DNA from: Flavobacterium xinjiangense
Lineage (GTDB): Bacteria > Bacteroidota > Bacteroidia > Flavobacteriales > Flavobacteriaceae
Reading direction: 5' to 3'
NCBI RefSeq assembly: GCF_900142885.1
Contig: NZ_FRCL01000011.1
Span: forward strand, 1-64,000
Length of the DNA: 64,000 nucleotides
Part shown: positions 2,975 through 62,642 of the stretch, in pieces
How positions within the stretch are numbered: the stretch's first letter is position 1
Layout of the letters: every line of letters begins with the position of its first letter
Notes under the pieces: model-generated
The model's database searches: none
Seen by the model: only the letters and a program-made list of their open reading frames with translations
Told to the model about the DNA's origin: nothing
Translations under genes and position numbers: made by a program

Positions 2975-3922
2975 TTATAATGATTTTATAAAAAGATTTA
3001 TTGCGGTCACTAATTTTTCGGTTACAGCTAAATTTGGATCAGAGTACGATCCCATATTCTCCGCATCATCTCCTTTTATTTCTTTGAAAATGTGATTCAT
3101 ATTGTCAATAACCATCAGTTTTGCCTCGGGTTTTGCTTTTTTTAGTAATTCCGCTTCTGAAACGGTCACCTGCAAATCTTTAGTCCCATTAATTATTAAC
3201 ACAGGGACTTGCAATTTTTTGATTTCGTTTTGTGGATTGTATTTTATCCAGGAAATCATATAGGGTTGAACACTTTCTCTAAAAAGGGATGCCAGCATTT
3301 TATTTTTTAATTCGAATGTTTGTCCGCTTTTAAGGATTTCCAAATCTTTTTGGACTTCTTCTTTTAGAAAAGGAGCTTGTTTTTCTATTTGTTCTAATAA
3401 AACAGCATCAATAGTTCGTCCGGCTCCAGCCAATGAGATAAAGGCATCAGTATTTTCGTTAGCGGCAAGCATTCCTATCAATGAACCTTCGCTATGACCG
3501 GCAACTATTATTTTGTTGTATTTTTTTTGATTTTTGAAGAAGCGAATAACTTCTTTGGCGTCGTTGATGAAGTCATCAAAGGAAAGTCTTGCCTCATTCA
3601 CCGTTCCTGCCGCCATTTGCGCGATAATCCTTTTGTCATAAGAAAAAACGGCCTGATTATTCTTGGATAATTCTTCTGATAGATATTTTAAAGAATTGTT
3701 GGTCATTACTTTTTGATTACTGTCACTGTCAGTGGGACCGGAACCTGCAATCAGAATAACGAGATTTGTTTTTTTAGTCTCTTTTAATGGAGAATACAAT
3801 GTTCCTTTTAGTAAAGGATTGATTGTTATTTCTTTTTTGTTGACAGCGGTTAAATCTTTTTTTTCTTGAGAAAAACCCAAGTTTGAAAGCAAAAGTAAAA
3901 AAGCGAATATTGATTTTTTCAT
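2975..3922 (-). CDS. Exported alpha/beta hydrolase
   Basis: A 315-residue secreted hydrolase. The N-terminus (LLLLSNLGFSQEKK) is a signal peptide with a likely signal peptidase I site around residue 18, so the enzyme should act in the periplasm. The alpha/beta hydrolase triad can be read: nucleophile Ser144 in AGHSEGS, acid Asp249 in NGTKDLQV and His277 in MNHIF. An oxyanion-type segment (LIAGSGPTDSD) lies near residue 58. The family includes serine aminopeptidases and esterases, and the sequence alone does not fix the substrate. Its start overlaps the end of the upstream PH-like gene by 4 bases, which suggests translational coupling. The M61 peptidase gene follows 48 bases later. Confidence 0.88.
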   Translation of the reverse strand: MKKSIFAFLLLLSNLGFSQEKKDLTAVNKKEITINPLLKGTLYSPLKETKKTNLVILIAGSGPTDSDSNQKVMTNNSLKYLSEELSKNNQAVFSYDKRIIAQMAAGTVNEARLSFDDFINDAKEVIRFFKNQKKYNKIIVAGHSEGSLIGMLAANENTDAFISLAGAGRTIDAVLLEQIEKQAPFLKEEVQKDLEILKSGQTFELKNKMLASLFRESVQPYMISWIKYNPQNEIKKLQVPVLIINGTKDLQVTVSEAELLKKAKPEAKLMVIDNMNHIFKEIKGDDAENMGSYSDPNLAVTEKLVTAINLFIKSL

Positions 3923-18327: not shown

Positions 18328-20775
18328 TTACAGACTTTTAGTAGTTTTTGTTTTTACCTCCTCATTATTTTTTAAATACTTTTCTAAGAACTGATCTTGT
18401 TCCCAAAGTAAATGCAAAATATTTTCTTTTGCCACATAACTATGCGCTTCTTTTGGTAAAATTACCATTCGGGCTGGAGCACCTAATCCTTTTAAAGCTT
18501 GGAAATAACGCTCGGTTTGCAAGGTAAAAGTTCCAGGATTATTATCGGCTTCACCGTGAACTAAAAGCATTGGTGTTTTCATTTTATCCGCATTCATAAA
18601 TGGCGACATGGTATTGTAAACATCTGGTCTTTCCCAGTAGTTGCGTTGTTCACTTTGGAATCCAAACGGAGTTAAGGTTCTGTTATACGCACCGCTTCTT
18701 GCAATACCACAAGCAAAAAGGTTAGAATGCGTCAATAAATTAGCAACCATGAAAGCGCCATATGAATGTCCGCCTATAGCCACTTTTTTCTTGTTGATAT
18801 AGCCTAAAGCATCCACTGCATTTATTGCTGCTTCTGCATTGTCAACTAATTGCGACATAAAATTATCATTTGGTTCTGTTGTTCCTTCCCCGATAATTGG
18901 GAAAGAAGCATCATCAAGTACCACATAACCTTTGGTTACCCAATAGACAAAAGATCCATAATACGGGAAAGTGAATTCATTTGGATTTTGATTGCTTTGT
19001 CCTGCTGATTTTTTGTCTTTATATTCTGCAGGGTAGGCCCAAATCAATAATGGTAATTTTTCTTTTTTTACTTTATCGTAGCCTTCTGGTAAATACAAAG
19101 TTCCGGATAATTCAACACCATCTTTTCTTTGGTATTTAATTACTTGTTTACTCACATTTTTGATGCTTTCAAACGGATTTTTAAAAGTGGTAATTGGTGT
19201 TAGACTGTTTTTTTGTTTAATGTTTCTAAAGTAATAATTTGGATAATCATTTTTAGATTGGATTTGAACTAATATCTCTCCTTTTTTGAAATCTTCAATC
19301 TCCAATAAATCTTCTTTTTTGTCTTTATAGGTTGAGGTATAGAGACGTTTAGGCTGTAATGTTTTTAGATTGAATTCGTCAATAAAAGGGAATTGTCCGT
19401 CTTTTGTAAATCCATCTCCAATACGATATGCATTATCATTTTCAATAGCCAACACATATTTATTGTATTGGTTTTTTTTGGTTTCAAAATTACCCGGGTC
19501 AGAATAAATATCCTGTGAATTTCTATCCGAAATTACTTTTGGTTTTTGGTTTAAATCAGATGGATTTATCAAATACGTTTTGGTATTTCGAGTATCATAC
19601 CATTCATCTGAAACAATCGCTACGTTGTCATTTCCCCAAATTACGTTACTAAATCGTTGTGGTGTTTTTACCAATGAGATCGCTGCTGCATCAAAAGGAG
19701 CATTCCAAAGAAAAACTTCATCTCTAAAATCAACTTTGTTGGCTTGGTCACCTTCGTCTAAAGCAACAACATATGATAACGTTGCTGGTTTGTCATTTCT
19801 CCAGCTCATTTCTCTTTTTCCTTTGCGAACTGCCATAAAACCTTTTGGCATAATTTCGTTAAGCGGCACTTCATTGACTGTTTTTATTTCGGTACCATTT
19901 CTATCACAAACTACTGATTTTAATGGAAAACGACTCAAAGGAACAATGTAAGAAAATGGTTTTTGAATGGTAGTCAGCATCAAAAAATTACCGTCTGGAG
20001 AGAAGCTTTCTCCCGCATACATATTTGCTGTTTTGAATAAAGTTGCTGTTCCGTTAATATTTACTTTGTACAATTCAGAAGTAATGATGTTTTCAAAATT
20101 GATTTCGTCATTTTTGTTTTTCAACATATCAGGATAGGTCCTGTTTTGTGATTTTGAACCGTTCGCATTTGAAATAATCGGACCTGTTGGCAAATCTTTT
20201 TTGGCATCCAATAATGTGGCTCTGTTTTTTGGCAGCATTTTTACCAAAATAGTTTCGTTGTCATTGAACCAACTGAATGGGTTTCCCAGATTAGCGTTTA
20301 CTGTGGCTTCGGTTAATTTTGTAGCTTTTGCAGAAGCAACATCTAATACCCAAAGTTGTACTCCCGTATTTGTAGAATGAGAGAATGAAATTTTCTTATC
20401 GTTAGGTGACCAAGAGATATTGCTAATACGAGGGTTTTCAGGTAATCCCGAAACTTGTATTTCAGTTTTGTCTTTTATTTTGCGTAATTTAATGTTAGTA
20501 ATATAGGTGACGGTGCTCGAAATATTGGTTACTGGATTGATACGCAAGCCGCCTAATCGCAATTCTTCCTGATTTAAATCATCTAAAGTTTTATAGGTAT
20601 TTCTATAGCTTAAGAGCATGTATTCTTTTTTAGTATCCATGGACACTGAAGGAGCTCTTTCATAATCTGCTAAATCTAAAATGGATTTAGATGGTTTTTG
20701 GTAGCTCAAGTTTTCTTGTGCCAATGCGGTTAAGCCTAGGCCAAGAAACAACAAGAAGGTGAGTTTTAATTTCAT
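18328..20775 (-). CDS. Exported S9-family prolyl oligopeptidase-like peptidase
   Basis: An 815-residue secreted serine peptidase. The ATG at 20775 begins a signal peptide (MKLKLTFLLFLGLGLTALAQ) with a likely signal peptidase I site after ALA. An upstream TTG lacks that shape. Residues 30-530 form a beta-propeller-like region (LWVLDVASAKATKLTEA is a typical blade). The C-terminal alpha/beta hydrolase domain carries the triad Ser671 (GGHSYGAFM), Asp744 (HGEADNNPG) and His778 (KEAHSYV). The DDASFPIIGEG segment and the overall length resemble the glutamyl-peptidase-like S9 group of Bacteroidota. It likely degrades peptides in the periplasm. Confidence 0.9.
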   Translation of the reverse strand: MKLKLTFLLFLGLGLTALAQENLSYQKPSKSILDLADYERAPSVSMDTKKEYMLLSYRNTYKTLDDLNQEELRLGGLRINPVTNISSTVTYITNIKLRKIKDKTEIQVSGLPENPRISNISWSPNDKKISFSHSTNTGVQLWVLDVASAKATKLTEATVNANLGNPFSWFNDNETILVKMLPKNRATLLDAKKDLPTGPIISNANGSKSQNRTYPDMLKNKNDEINFENIITSELYKVNINGTATLFKTANMYAGESFSPDGNFLMLTTIQKPFSYIVPLSRFPLKSVVCDRNGTEIKTVNEVPLNEIMPKGFMAVRKGKREMSWRNDKPATLSYVVALDEGDQANKVDFRDEVFLWNAPFDAAAISLVKTPQRFSNVIWGNDNVAIVSDEWYDTRNTKTYLINPSDLNQKPKVISDRNSQDIYSDPGNFETKKNQYNKYVLAIENDNAYRIGDGFTKDGQFPFIDEFNLKTLQPKRLYTSTYKDKKEDLLEIEDFKKGEILVQIQSKNDYPNYYFRNIKQKNSLTPITTFKNPFESIKNVSKQVIKYQRKDGVELSGTLYLPEGYDKVKKEKLPLLIWAYPAEYKDKKSAGQSNQNPNEFTFPYYGSFVYWVTKGYVVLDDASFPIIGEGTTEPNDNFMSQLVDNAEAAINAVDALGYINKKKVAIGGHSYGAFMVANLLTHSNLFACGIARSGAYNRTLTPFGFQSEQRNYWERPDVYNTMSPFMNADKMKTPMLLVHGEADNNPGTFTLQTERYFQALKGLGAPARMVILPKEAHSYVAKENILHLLWEQDQFLEKYLKNNEEVKTKTTKSL

Positions 20776-20875
20776 AAATTTAAATAGTGTCAATTATTAC
20801 AGAGTTATTGTTCTGATTGGTCTTAAATAATTGAATAATGTTACATTGAAAAAGAATTGTTGTACGATTTAGACT

Positions 20876-20965
20876 TTTTAGCCCCGATGGGAGCGGCATC
20901 CTTTTATTATCGTTTTTTAACGAGAATGAAAGATATAGCGTACAGCGGGAAATAGCTTCTAAAAA
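20876..20965. repeat. Dispersed palindromic element with central hairpin, copy 1
   Basis: Terminal TTTTTAG and CTAAAAA bound an element whose inside reads GCCCCGAT then GAGCGGCATCC, a variable centre (ATTATCGTT pairing with AACGAGAAT at 8 of 9 positions), then GATATAGCG and GGGAAATAGCTTC. A related element in the opposite orientation lies at 40236-40334. It occupies the divergent gap between the S9 peptidase and KAS III genes. Confidence 0.7.
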
Positions 20966-21063: not shown

Positions 21064-22071
21064 ATGTACCATTCAAAAATAGCAGGATTAGGATTTTATG
21101 TTCCTTCAAATGTGGTCACCAACGATGATTTGTCGAAAATCATTGACACTAACGATGAATGGATTCAGGAAAGAACAGGGATTCAAGAGCGAAGACACAT
21201 AATAAGAGGCGAGGACACAACCACATCGATGGGAGTAAAAGCTGCTGAAATTGCCATAGAGCGTTCCGGAGTTGCAAAAGAGGATATTGATTTTGTGGTT
21301 TTTGCTACCTTAAGTCCGGATTATTATTTTCCTGGCCCAGGAGTTTTGGTGCAACGTGATTTAGGTTTAAGAACCGTGGGTGCATTAGATGTTAGAAATC
21401 AGTGTTCTGGTTTTATATATGCTTTGTCAGTGGCAGATCAATATATTAAAACGGGAATGTATAAAAATGTTTTGATTATTGGTTCTGAAGTGCATTCGAC
21501 AGGACTGGATATGACTTCTCGAGGGAGAGGAGTTTCGGTGATTTTTGGTGATGGGGCAGGAGCAGCCGTTTTGAGCAGGGAAGAAGATTTGACAAAAGGA
21601 ATTTTGTCTACGCATTTGCATTCAGAAGGGCAACATGCCGAGGAATTAGCACTCGTTGCTCCAGGAATGGGCGCGCGTTGGGTTACCGATATTATTGCTG
21701 ATAATGATCCAAATGATGAAAGCTATTACCCACATATGAATGGACAATTTGTGTTTAAAAATGCAGTAGTTCGTTTTGCAGAAGTAATAAATGAAGGCTT
21801 GCAAGCGAATAACTTACAAGTTTCCGACATTGATATGTTGATTCCGCATCAGGCTAATTTGAGGATTTCTCAATTTATTCAGAAGAAATTTGGATTGGCG
21901 GATGACCAAGTTTATAATAATATTCAAAAATACGGGAATACTACAGCAGCTTCTATTCCTATTGCTTTGACTGAAGCATGGGAAAAAGGAAAAATCAAAT
22001 CGGGTGATACTGTTGTTTTGGCTGCATTTGGTAGCGGATTCACTTGGGGAAGTGCTATTATAAAATGGTAG
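21064..22071 (+). CDS. 3-oxoacyl-ACP synthase III family protein (FabH-like)
   Basis: A 335-residue thiolase-fold condensing enzyme. The KAS III triad is complete: Cys114 (RNQCSGFIYAL), His262 (IPHQANLRI) and Asn292 (KYGNTTAASIP). The segments DEWIQERTGIQERR and FGDGAGAAVLS are also typical. KAS III starts fatty acid synthesis by condensing acyl-CoA with malonyl-ACP. The gene stands alone with its own promoter and terminator, away from the plsX/rpmF genes that usually flank fabH. It may therefore be a paralogue with a different primer or a role in a specialised lipid. Family assignment is firm, the exact substrate is not. Confidence 0.88.
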   Translation: MYHSKIAGLGFYVPSNVVTNDDLSKIIDTNDEWIQERTGIQERRHIIRGEDTTTSMGVKAAEIAIERSGVAKEDIDFVVFATLSPDYYFPGPGVLVQRDLGLRTVGALDVRNQCSGFIYALSVADQYIKTGMYKNVLIIGSEVHSTGLDMTSRGRGVSVIFGDGAGAAVLSREEDLTKGILSTHLHSEGQHAEELALVAPGMGARWVTDIIADNDPNDESYYPHMNGQFVFKNAVVRFAEVINEGLQANNLQVSDIDMLIPHQANLRISQFIQKKFGLADDQVYNNIQKYGNTTAASIPIALTEAWEKGKIKSGDTVVLAAFGSGFTWGSAIIKW

Positions 22072-40235: not shown

Positions 40236-40334
40236 TTTTTTAAGCAATGGTTGTCCTGCTTTCCGTTGTATCCGCGCTGATAGCTTCGTTCCTCGCAATG
40301 ATAGCGCGGGATGCCACTACAATCAGGGCTAGAG
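40236..40334. repeat. Dispersed palindromic element, copy 2, in a 331-base gap
   Basis: Reads TTTTTTAAGC, then TCCTGCTTTCCGTTGTAT, a central hairpin (CCGCGCT at 40272-40278 pairs with AGCGCGG at 40303-40309), then GGGATGCCAC and CAATCAGGGCTAG. Its reverse complement aligns with the 20876 element at both ends while the centre differs. The gap 40128-40458 also holds the lipA promoter box, TTTATTTG words (40163-40195) and a terminator. I see no gene in it. Confidence 0.7.
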
Positions 40335-62235: not shown

Positions 62236-62642
62236 TTATTTTTCTAAATTTTGAACCGTAAAAATACAATTATTTATGGTTTCTAAAAATCTATTTTGTT
62301 AACATTTGTTAAGGCTTGATTCCTTGCTATTTGAGCGAATTATTGTTTTTTAAATTGAGGTCCTTTTTAGGAGCTATTCCAACTGTTCGTTTCAAGTTCT
62401 TGAGCTCCAAGCTTTTTTTCTATTGCCATAAAAGGAGCTTCTTTTGGTCGCTCTTTTCTGTCAGGAAAAAATAGCTTTTAGCTCGGCGAAGCTTTCCTCT
62501 GCCATTTGGGCTAGGGAAGTTGGAGATTCGTGATGGAGTGGAGGTATTAATTTTATTGACCTATGGTAGCAATAGTATTTAAGTATAAAAATTTAAAATG
62601 CGCTTTTTTCAAAAAGGAGATTAATCAATCATTTTTAAACAT
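62236..62642. other. Gene-free stretch with a probable third palindromic element
   Basis: This 407-base stretch carries no credible gene. From 62364 it reads TTTTTAGGAGCTATTCC, close to the reverse complement of the 20876 element end. TCCAACT (62378-62384) pairs with AGTTGGA (62518-62524), and GGGCTAG (62508-62514) marks the far side. The centre is longer than in the other two copies and contains CTTTTGG and CCATAAAAGGAGC words. I treat it as a diverged or rearranged member of that family. Confidence 0.45.

What the first reader, a model, noticed from the sequence alone, without database searches (positions are those of the whole stretch)
20876..20965. Palindromic intergenic element with fixed ends and a variable central hairpin
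The ends (TTTTTAGCCCCGAT...GCGGCATCC and GATATAGCG...GGGAAATAGC) match the element at 40236 in reverse orientation, but the internal stem sequences differ (ATTATCGTT here, CCGCGCT there) while still pairing with themselves. Retention of pairing with changed bases points to selection on structure. I recall similar sequences between genes in Flavobacterium, but I know of no described function.
Basis: partly seen in the sequence, partly recalled or inferred. Interest (0 to 1): 0.52.

Follow-up and report, generated by a model that had tools for sequence, protein, structure and literature searches.

The report
Swappable-core hairpin repeats in Flavobacterium
The element is a copy of a known but unexplained Flavobacterium hairpin repeat (Flavo-1); comparing two close species shows that its ends stay put while its central hairpin is often replaced as a unit by hairpins like those in other copies, so part of the striking base-pair matching can come from core swapping rather than slow compensating mutation.

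Summary
Window 20876-20956(+) and 40248-40334(-) are copies of Rfam RF01705 Flavo-1 (71.4 and 50.8 bits, cut-off 42). The genome holds 93 matches, 87 over cut-off. Pairing with changed bases is real: 96.9% of cells paired, 77.9% in shuffles. REP/RAYT ownership is not supported: the two Y1-transposase ORFs here carry their own unrelated palindromes, and 11 of 58 Flavo-1-rich genomes lack a Y1 match. New: against F. urumqiense (flanks 89% identical), 47 orthologous copies could be parsed; the central hairpin is kept in 25, replaced in 18, undecided in 4 (the finding's own copy among them). Of 36 tips at replaced sites, 22 have a near-identical tip at another locus (control mean 5.6). Both arms carry the same module type in 194 of 194 parsed copies. 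The third window copy, 62374-62514(-), belongs to a 138-142-nt long form scoring below Rfam's cut-off; 55 of 81 Flavobacterium genomes have a strong match. Best reading: a dispersed DNA hairpin repeat with exchangeable cores; how cores are exchanged is inferred.

The parts
20876..20956 (+). Flavo-1 element (the finding), short form, C-type middle module
   Evidence: Rfam RF01705, 71.4 bits; R1 model 86.1 bits (a training member of R1)
20876..20901 (+). 5' arm TTTTAGCCCCGATGGGAGCGGCATCC
   Evidence: sequence; structure
20902..20931 (+). tip hairpin, the part that is exchanged at other copies (undecided at this one)
   Evidence: sequence; comparison with L124
20932..20956 (+). 3' arm GATATAGCGTACAGCGGGAAATAGC
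   Evidence: sequence
40248..40334 (-). second Flavo-1 copy; its tip carries the palindrome ATTGCGAGGAACGAAGC, close copies of which also stand alone elsewhere in the genome
   Evidence: Rfam RF01705, 50.8 bits; stand-alone copies on C20
62374..62514 (-). third copy, long form (141 nt): Flavo-1-type base, long variable stem, conserved apex AGCGACC..GAAGCTC
   Evidence: R2 125.8 bits (a training member of R2); Rfam Flavo-1 34.7 bits, below cut-off 42
18328..20793 (-). neighbouring ORF, S9-type peptidase by my reading (no family search made)
21064..22071 (+). neighbouring ORF, ketoacyl-ACP synthase III by my reading (no family search made); the two genes diverge from the element
   Evidence: same neighbours in 79 of 80 relatives

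Best explanation
It is a short-form Flavo-1 element: a dispersed, non-coding DNA repeat whose + strand folds into a hairpin with a conserved imperfect base (short helices separated by a mismatch and two 3x3 loops of the GNA/GNA kind) and an arbitrary but well-paired tip. Positions are mostly inherited between the two species compared; what turns over is the core. Shown: at orthologous sites the tip, sometimes with the middle module of both arms, is replaced as a unit while the outer ends mostly stay, and many of the tips are near-identical to tips in other copies. Inferred: the hairpin or cruciform is opened or cut at its tip (a hairpin nuclease such as SbcCD is my guess, from recalled knowledge) and is repaired from another copy through the short arms, so that cores move between loci; the conserved arms are the recognised or re-annealing part. 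Whether the repeat also serves the cell is not shown; I think it mostly persists as a selfish or neutral repeat tolerated between genes.
For: Repeat family: 93 matches here, 86 in G032, 98 in F. urumqiense; 75 of 81 Flavobacterium genomes, from 0 to the scoring limit of 50. Site stability: C20 against G081:C26, 13 of 14 own and 13 of 14 F. urumqiense copies that have syntenic flanks are occupied in the other species (mostly the same sites seen from both sides; one long form and one perfect palindrome counted by eye; 5 of 19 own and 3 of 17 F. urumqiense copies had no syntenic flanks). Core replacement: 56 of 91 own copies paired, 47 parsed; tip identity >=0.80 in 25, <0.65 in 18, between in 4; random own x F. 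urumqiense tips have median 0.52 and 95th percentile 0.78. Mean flank identity 90% for the 18 replaced and 89% for the 29 others; arm identity in the 12 replaced sites without module switch is like that of the 29 others (5' arm 0.93 and 0.93; 3' arm 0.92 and 0.89). Module switch A<->C in 6 of 18 replaced, 0 of 25 kept (p=0.003), 1 of 4 undecided. Arms matched in type in 194 of 194 parsed copies (132 AA, 62 CC; 26 of the 220 copies tried did not parse). Source of tips: of the 36 tips at replaced sites 22 have a tip >=85% identical at another locus, against mean 5.6 and maximum 8 in 12 pools with permuted stem pairs; for tips of 34 nt or more 9 of 17 against 0. Example: C17:233143, parsed arm segments identical, a 52-nt tip here and a different 27-nt tip there. 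Tip half-site CTGAACTTGTTTCAGGA (up to 2 mismatches): 17 sites in the two genomes, 14 inside Flavo-1 and 3 within about 30 bases of one, by comparing. No coupling to transcription: relative to both neighbours 40 antisense, 26 sense, 16 divergent, 4 convergent of 86 classified among 89 (p=0.11 for 40:26); a published F. psychrophilum transcriptome says hits lie 'indistinctly' in sense or antisense of transcribed regions and many are not in them (PMC9723704, passage).
Against: No event was seen happening and no nuclease was tested. The arms common to donor and recipient are only 20-30 nt, short for RecA recombination (recalled). At another site (downstream of an htpG-like gene in L155) 17 of 19 matches keep the same tip family across species (my reading; same site inferred from position), so exchange is not universal. 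The finding's own copy is among the 4 undecided pairs (tip identity 0.73 after I corrected a wrong parse by hand), although its arms differ in type and outer pair from F. urumqiense. Outer-pair differences also occur at sites whose tips are kept, so the outer ends are not fully fixed. Identity thresholds were mine. Only 56 of 91 copies were paired, because I held part of the F. urumqiense genome. Draft assemblies could in principle misjoin repeats, though two misjoins per locus would be needed.
Confidence: 0.6

Rival explanations
1. A functional structured RNA (small RNA or untranslated-region element), as the Rfam type says; covariation reflects selection on the RNA fold.
For: Strong covariation; conserved purine loops on one strand; the long form keeps 138-142 nt in 41 of 41 aligned copies and an apex helix that never breaks in them; about nine long forms share one site about 105-110 nt before a gene; several 5' transcribed regions of F. 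psychrophilum coincide with hits (PMC9723704); the discovery paper rates the motif 'probably' an RNA and probably not cis-regulatory (PMC2864571).
Against: No fixed strand relative to genes (long forms 17 anti/anti, 11 anti/sense, 7 sense/anti, 4 sense/sense of 41, 2 not classified); 0 matches in 6 of 81 congeners; arbitrary tips swapped; the transcriptome paper says many hits are not in transcribed regions.
Confidence: 0.2
2. REP-type element moved by a RAYT/IS200-like Y1 transposase.
For: Two Y1_Tnp ORFs in the genome (one below the family cut-off), each with a Flavo-1 716 or 924 bases downstream; weak rank correlation of copy numbers (rho 0.33, p=0.003, not corrected for genome size); in L405 a Y1-like ORF (my reading) starts about 65 bases from an element; in L304 a Y1 gene lies between a 5' half element and a full one.
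Against: Both own ORFs are immediately flanked by other palindromes, with an ORF between them and Flavo-1; 11 of 58 genomes with >=28 copies have no Y1_Tnp match, and 3 of 6 genomes without Flavo-1 have one; of the 30 best Y1 loci in the genus 1 (L304) holds a full Flavo-1 within about 1.5 kb, in a region that I read as a duplication. Those 30 are mostly the strong full-length Y1 class, not the weaker class of the own ORFs, so that class was tested only here. Sites are mostly shared between species; the L405 genome had no match to the family model.
Confidence: 0.08
3. Ordinary point mutation with compensating selection; no exchange between copies.
For: The 25 kept pairs differ by few changes; variable pairs in the arms show several types; the htpG-side site keeps one tip family in 17 of 19 matches.
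Against: 18 tips are unrelated across about 90% identical flanks; no arm-type mixture in 194 parsed copies; the same long tip occurs at several loci in both arm types, beyond a permuted-stem control.
Confidence: 0.1
4. Hairpin-templated mutation inside one copy (template switching) makes the compensated changes.
For: One clear case: opposite F. urumqiense C26:81645 the own copy is a near-perfect inverted repeat of its 3' arm.
Against: It would erase the mismatched loops, which are conserved in the 37-copy alignment, and cannot import tips found at other loci.
Confidence: 0.1

Closest known systems
Flavo-1 RNA (Rfam RF01705; Weinberg et al. 2010, PMC2864571)
   Same: Same family: model positions 1-76 matched at 71.4 bits.
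   Different: Nothing in this copy. DNA-repeat behaviour, core replacement and the 138-142-nt long form are not in the passages I read; the paper's supplements, which treat the motif, were not open to me.
REP sequences thought to evolve by gene conversion (Higgins et al. 1988, title seen in the reference list of PMC2267715)
   Same: The idea that interspersed bacterial palindromes are homogenised by conversion is old.
   Different: I saw only the title; here exchange is seen in a nested core between two species, with the ends largely kept.
BOX elements of Streptococcus pneumoniae (PMC3049150, passages)
   Same: Short interspersed hairpins built of modules between constant ends; repeats sometimes inserted into one another.
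   Different: Unrelated by my reading; BOX varies by the number of tandem boxB modules, Flavo-1 by replacing one nested core.
GTAG REPs and RAYT transposases (PMC3733652, passages)
   Same: Dispersed intergenic palindromes.
   Different: No transposase found bracketed by Flavo-1 among those examined; the genome's two Y1 ORFs have their own palindromes.
attC sites of integrons (recalled, no call)
   Same: Conserved outer arms and a variable terminal structure on one strand.
   Different: attC motifs, cassette arrays and integrases were not searched for.

Membership tests
Rfam Flavo-1 (RF01705) | covariance-model score at or above 42 bits | tested here: met
   71.4 bits at 20876-20956 and 50.8 bits at 40248-40334; the third copy 34.7 bits, below
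Rfam Flavo-1 (RF01705) | acts as an RNA | not testable with these tools
   no expression data held; a published passage says hits are in sense or antisense and many outside transcribed regions (PMC9723704)
REP element with RAYT | RAYT gene immediately flanked by the repeat | tested here: not met
   both own Y1 ORFs flanked by other palindromes; 1 of 30 further Y1 loci, mostly of another Y1 class, near a full Flavo-1
REP element with RAYT | transposase present wherever the repeat is abundant | tested here: not met
   11 of 58 genomes with >=28 copies have no Y1_Tnp match at E<=1e-3
REP element with RAYT | GTAG or CGTC tag at one end of a short palindrome | tested here: not met
   reading of the consensus: the 5' end is TAGCCCYGAT
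MITE (cut-and-paste miniature transposon) | terminal inverted repeats, target duplication and empty sites | tested here: inconclusive
   two presence/absence differences among the sites (14 own and 14 F. urumqiense copies with flanks, mostly the same sites); neither is a clean empty site, so no duplication could be scored
intrinsic transcription terminator | G+C-rich hairpin followed by a U run on the transcribed strand | tested here: not met
   reading for this copy: T run at the 5' end and A run at the 3' end of the + strand, so neither transcript ends in a U run

The most novel reading that the evidence does not exclude
Flavo-1 arms are a socket: hairpin cores, from 7-nt loops to a tip cassette found only in or beside Flavo-1 and a structured insert of about 100 nt, are copied between loci by a dedicated single-strand process. 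The 138-142-nt long form, with a fixed length and an invariant apex helix, is an undescribed element class that may be the form recognised by the responsible protein.
Probability: 0.25. Interest if true: 0.75.

Novelty: new variant of a known kind. Interest (0 to 1): 0.5.

Why it matters
Covariation is the standard sign of a functional RNA. Here a family curated as a small RNA shows covariation that arises, at least in its tip, by replacing the whole hairpin, so core exchange can imitate selection on structure. It also offers an abundant natural system (93 to 98 matches in the two genomes compared) in which exchange of hairpin cores between dispersed sites can be measured, and it adds a 138-142-nt structured form whose copy in this window scores below Rfam's cut-off.

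Tried and rejected
REP/RAYT ownership: tested by neighbourhood, copy number and the 30 best Y1 loci of the genus; not supported. The weaker Y1 class, to which the own ORFs belong, was not surveyed elsewhere. Replication-strand bias: in G032, with an origin near 0.95 Mb and a terminus near 2.85 Mb guessed from 20 skew samples, strands did not flip (18+/12- against 29+/10-, 5 of 74 near the boundary left out; my count); pooled with contig C20, 53 of 87 lagging, p=0.053, not accepted. G032 alone has 50+/24- (p=0.003), unexplained. Promoter or terminator niche: intergenic classes against two 400-kb controls, chi-square p=0.09. 16 of 40 antisense-tandem copies end 8-17 nt from a stop codon; no control for that distance was made. 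Mobile elements: no phage match; three Riemerella plasmid records share 30 bases (blastn). A conserved partner gene beside copies in low-copy genomes: none evident to my reading beyond restriction-modification-like ORFs. G-U frequency as an RNA-versus-DNA test: judged uninformative. A probability printed (0.0005) assumed that all 7 module switches were among replaced sites; that was wrong after a parse was corrected, and one search gives the corrected test. I began with two tip classes and changed to three after seeing the random distribution. A count of 23 of 36 shared tips was replaced by 22 of 36 with a control.

Full report
WHAT IS THERE. A third copy at 62374-62514(-) scores 34.7 bits with Rfam and belongs to a long form described below. 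The genome (G000, 3.9 Mb, 33 contigs) holds 93 matches at E<=1e-3, 87 over cut-off. 75 of 81 Flavobacterium genomes have the family, from none (6 genomes) to the scoring limit of 50; across the phylum 44 of 296 genomes and 22 of 139 genera have a match, 36 genomes one over cut-off.

STRUCTURE. On 37 copies aligned by MAFFT RNAalifold gives 25 pairs, 14 with double changes; 96.9% of 918 cells pair, against 77.9% in shuffles and at most 52.0% with slid partners. The number of pairs with double changes does not exceed shuffles (14 against mean 12.6), while cells with double changes do (197 against 58.6). Reading the alignment, the base is CCYG/CRGG, an A.G mismatch, TR/YA, a GNA/GNA 3x3 loop, RY/RY, then one of two middle modules: A-type (GRAAATCC..GATTGNA) or C-type (GGCATCC..GATANA). 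Tandem sheared G.A pairing in such loops is recalled knowledge, not tested. As single-stranded DNA the + strand of three short copies folded better than the complement (z -2.90, -4.20, -3.72 against -1.06, -2.38, -2.31), and so did the window's long copy (-2.82 against -1.92).

SITES ARE INHERITED, CORES ARE NOT. At the finding's own junction 79 of 80 relatives keep the two flanking genes; a Flavo-1 is detected there in 5 of those 79 (L124, L130, L133, L153, L171) besides the window. In the alignment one further relative, L127, shows what I read as a decayed copy. Among the six the module types are C, A, A, C, C, A (window, L124, L130, L133, L153, L171), with five different tips (my reading). 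Comparing contig C20 with F. urumqiense contig C26, 13 of 14 copies in each direction that have syntenic flanks are occupied in the other species (two occupied sites were judged by eye: a long form opposite own 379211 and a near-perfect palindrome opposite F. urumqiense 81645). The exceptions are own 399010, opposite unrelated sequence, and F. urumqiense 118666, opposite another palindrome. 5 of 19 own and 3 of 17 F. urumqiense copies had no syntenic flanks and are not counted.

REPLACEMENT. I assembled 91 of 93 own copies with flanks; 56 had syntenic flanks on both sides in the F. urumqiense sequence held, 47 of these parsed and 9 did not. Tip identity: 25 at or above 0.80, 18 below 0.65, 4 between; random non-orthologous tips have median 0.52, 95th percentile 0.78. 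Flanks of the 18 and of the other 29 are equally similar (90% and 89%). Six of the 18 replaced sites, none of the 25 kept, and one of the 4 undecided (the finding's own copy) also switch module type in both arms (Fisher p=0.003 for 6/18 against 0/25). The tract thus looks nested: tip alone most often, tip plus middle module sometimes. Differences in the outer pair were printed for some replaced, undecided and kept sites alike, so they do not follow the tips. Over 194 parsed copies (75 of 91 own, 66 of 70 tried from F. urumqiense, 53 of 59 from G032 and other genomes) the two arms always agree in type (132 AA, 62 CC).

WHERE NEW CORES COME FROM. Of the 36 tips at the 18 replaced sites, 22 have a tip at least 85% identical at another locus of the two genomes; with the pool's stem pairs permuted the mean is 5.6 and the maximum 8 in 12 trials. 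For tips of 34 nt or more the figures are 9 of 17 against 0. The long tip TTTCTAGTCCTGAACTTGTTTCAGGATCCTGAAACAAGTTCAGGACTAGAAA and close variants occur in A-type and C-type arms at several loci of each genome. Genome-wide its half-site, with up to 2 mismatches, lies at 17 places in the two genomes; comparison with the element lists puts 14 inside Flavo-1 and 3 within about 30 bases of one. F. urumqiense carries it at four orthologous sites where this genome has another tip (opposite own C32:514373, C16:44433, C25:76917 and C28:119557), and this genome carries it at one where F. urumqiense does not (C17:233143). Two other tip palindromes (CTGTCAGGGTTT.. and ATTGCGAGGAACGAAGC) also exist alone, so tips have more than one source. 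67 own tips of 20 nt or more fold far better than mononucleotide shuffles (mean z -6.4; 90% below -2).

LONG FORM. Searching the held sequence for a motif seen in replaced cores gave 12 copies; one was cut short by the script and I set its end by eye. As aligned they are 135-142 nt. Their MAFFT alignment has 39 pairs, 30 with double changes (shuffled 17.8); 87.3% of cells pair against 69.0% shuffled, covariation 0.520 against 0.191. A model (R2) found matches in 66 of 81 Flavobacterium genomes, 55 with best E<=1e-18, 4 between that and 1e-13, 7 weaker; short copies also match weakly, so 55 is the better count. In a search of 1.64 Mb of held sequence the 11 matches above 100 bits were all training members, and the next, at 67 bits, was a short copy. 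With 29 further copies from other genomes, chosen as the best of their genomes, 41 aligned copies are all 138-142 nt, with an apex helix AGC/GCT paired in 41 of 41 and 31 of 39 pairs with double changes. This second alignment is fitted to the model, and about nine rows share spacing and flanks that suggest one site; the gene after it was read only in L448, an M23-like peptidase. Five genomes with 29-49 short copies have no match better than 1e-13, so the long form is not required for the short one. At two orthologous sites F. urumqiense has a long core where this genome has a short one (C20:379211, C20:333779).

HOW IT MOST LIKELY WORKS. Shown: a dispersed repeat with mostly inherited positions, conserved mismatched arms and replaceable cores shared among copies. 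Inferred: exchange starts at the hairpin tip and is repaired from another copy. Not shown: enzyme, rate, benefit. Gene context gives no support for a fixed RNA strand, and the F. psychrophilum transcriptome paper says the same of its hits (PMC9723704, passage).

LITERATURE. Seen as passages only: PMC2864571 (Table 1 line and its legend: probably an RNA, probably not cis-regulatory, not a switch), PMC9723704, PMC9029176 (lists Flavo-1 among abundant sRNA families without function), PMC3733652, PMC3049150, PMC12306157 (one table passage that lists F. urumqiense among genomes with REPs), PMC2267715 (one reference entry). Searches of the open-access library gave me no account of core exchange in Flavo-1 or of a long form; most listed papers were not opened, supplements and subscription papers were not available, and gene conversion of REPs has been proposed (title of Higgins et al. 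1988).

Noticed in passing
L063 2909-2950, 3561-3594, 3625-3666, 4216-4232: A Y1-transposase ORF (2987-3553) is bracketed by its own palindrome CCGCACGAATCCTTTCGTGTGG with GTAG nearby: a REP-type unit in the same genome.
   Followed up: partly
L064 425-912 and 1577-1601: The second Y1-like ORF (about 941-1540, below the family cut-off) follows a 244-nt tandem duplication (94% identical) carrying another palindrome, CTGCGAAGTC..GACTTCGCAG.
   Followed up: no
own C20:236705, C16:104314, C28:119557, C32:49182, C32:511631; F. urumqiense opposite C32:459370 and C18:270284: An insert of about 46 nt with TTCAC..GTGAA ends sits after GATT in either arm of several Flavo-1 copies.
   Followed up: no
own C17:220483 and C32:511631; L304 about 2645-2675: A roughly 26-nt insert like CACGAGCGAAGCGAACTGACGAAGTAA recurs at one position in the 3' outer end, in two genomes.
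   Followed up: no
most of L394-L412; own C20:219718, C20:389339, C32:290449: A second type of outer arm, GCGTGAGGGAT..AGCCCGACCC, often with GGTCACGCC beyond it, is usual in the low-copy genomes I read and also present here.
   Followed up: partly
L395, L398, L399, L400: In 4 of the 5 genomes that have a single match, it lies beside ORFs that look like restriction-modification genes (my reading, no family search); the matches in L399 and L400 are below Rfam's cut-off.
   Followed up: no
F. urumqiense C26:81645-81733 and its own counterpart on C20: The own copy has become a near-perfect inverted repeat, as expected from hairpin-templated correction.
   Followed up: no
L125: A contig titled as a Klebsiella pneumoniae metagenome bin encodes a peptidase 89% identical to the Flavobacterium one; the bin label is probably wrong.
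   Followed up: no
G032 whole chromosome: Flavo-1 copies over cut-off lie 50+ and 24- over the chromosome without a change at the guessed origin or terminus.
   Followed up: partly
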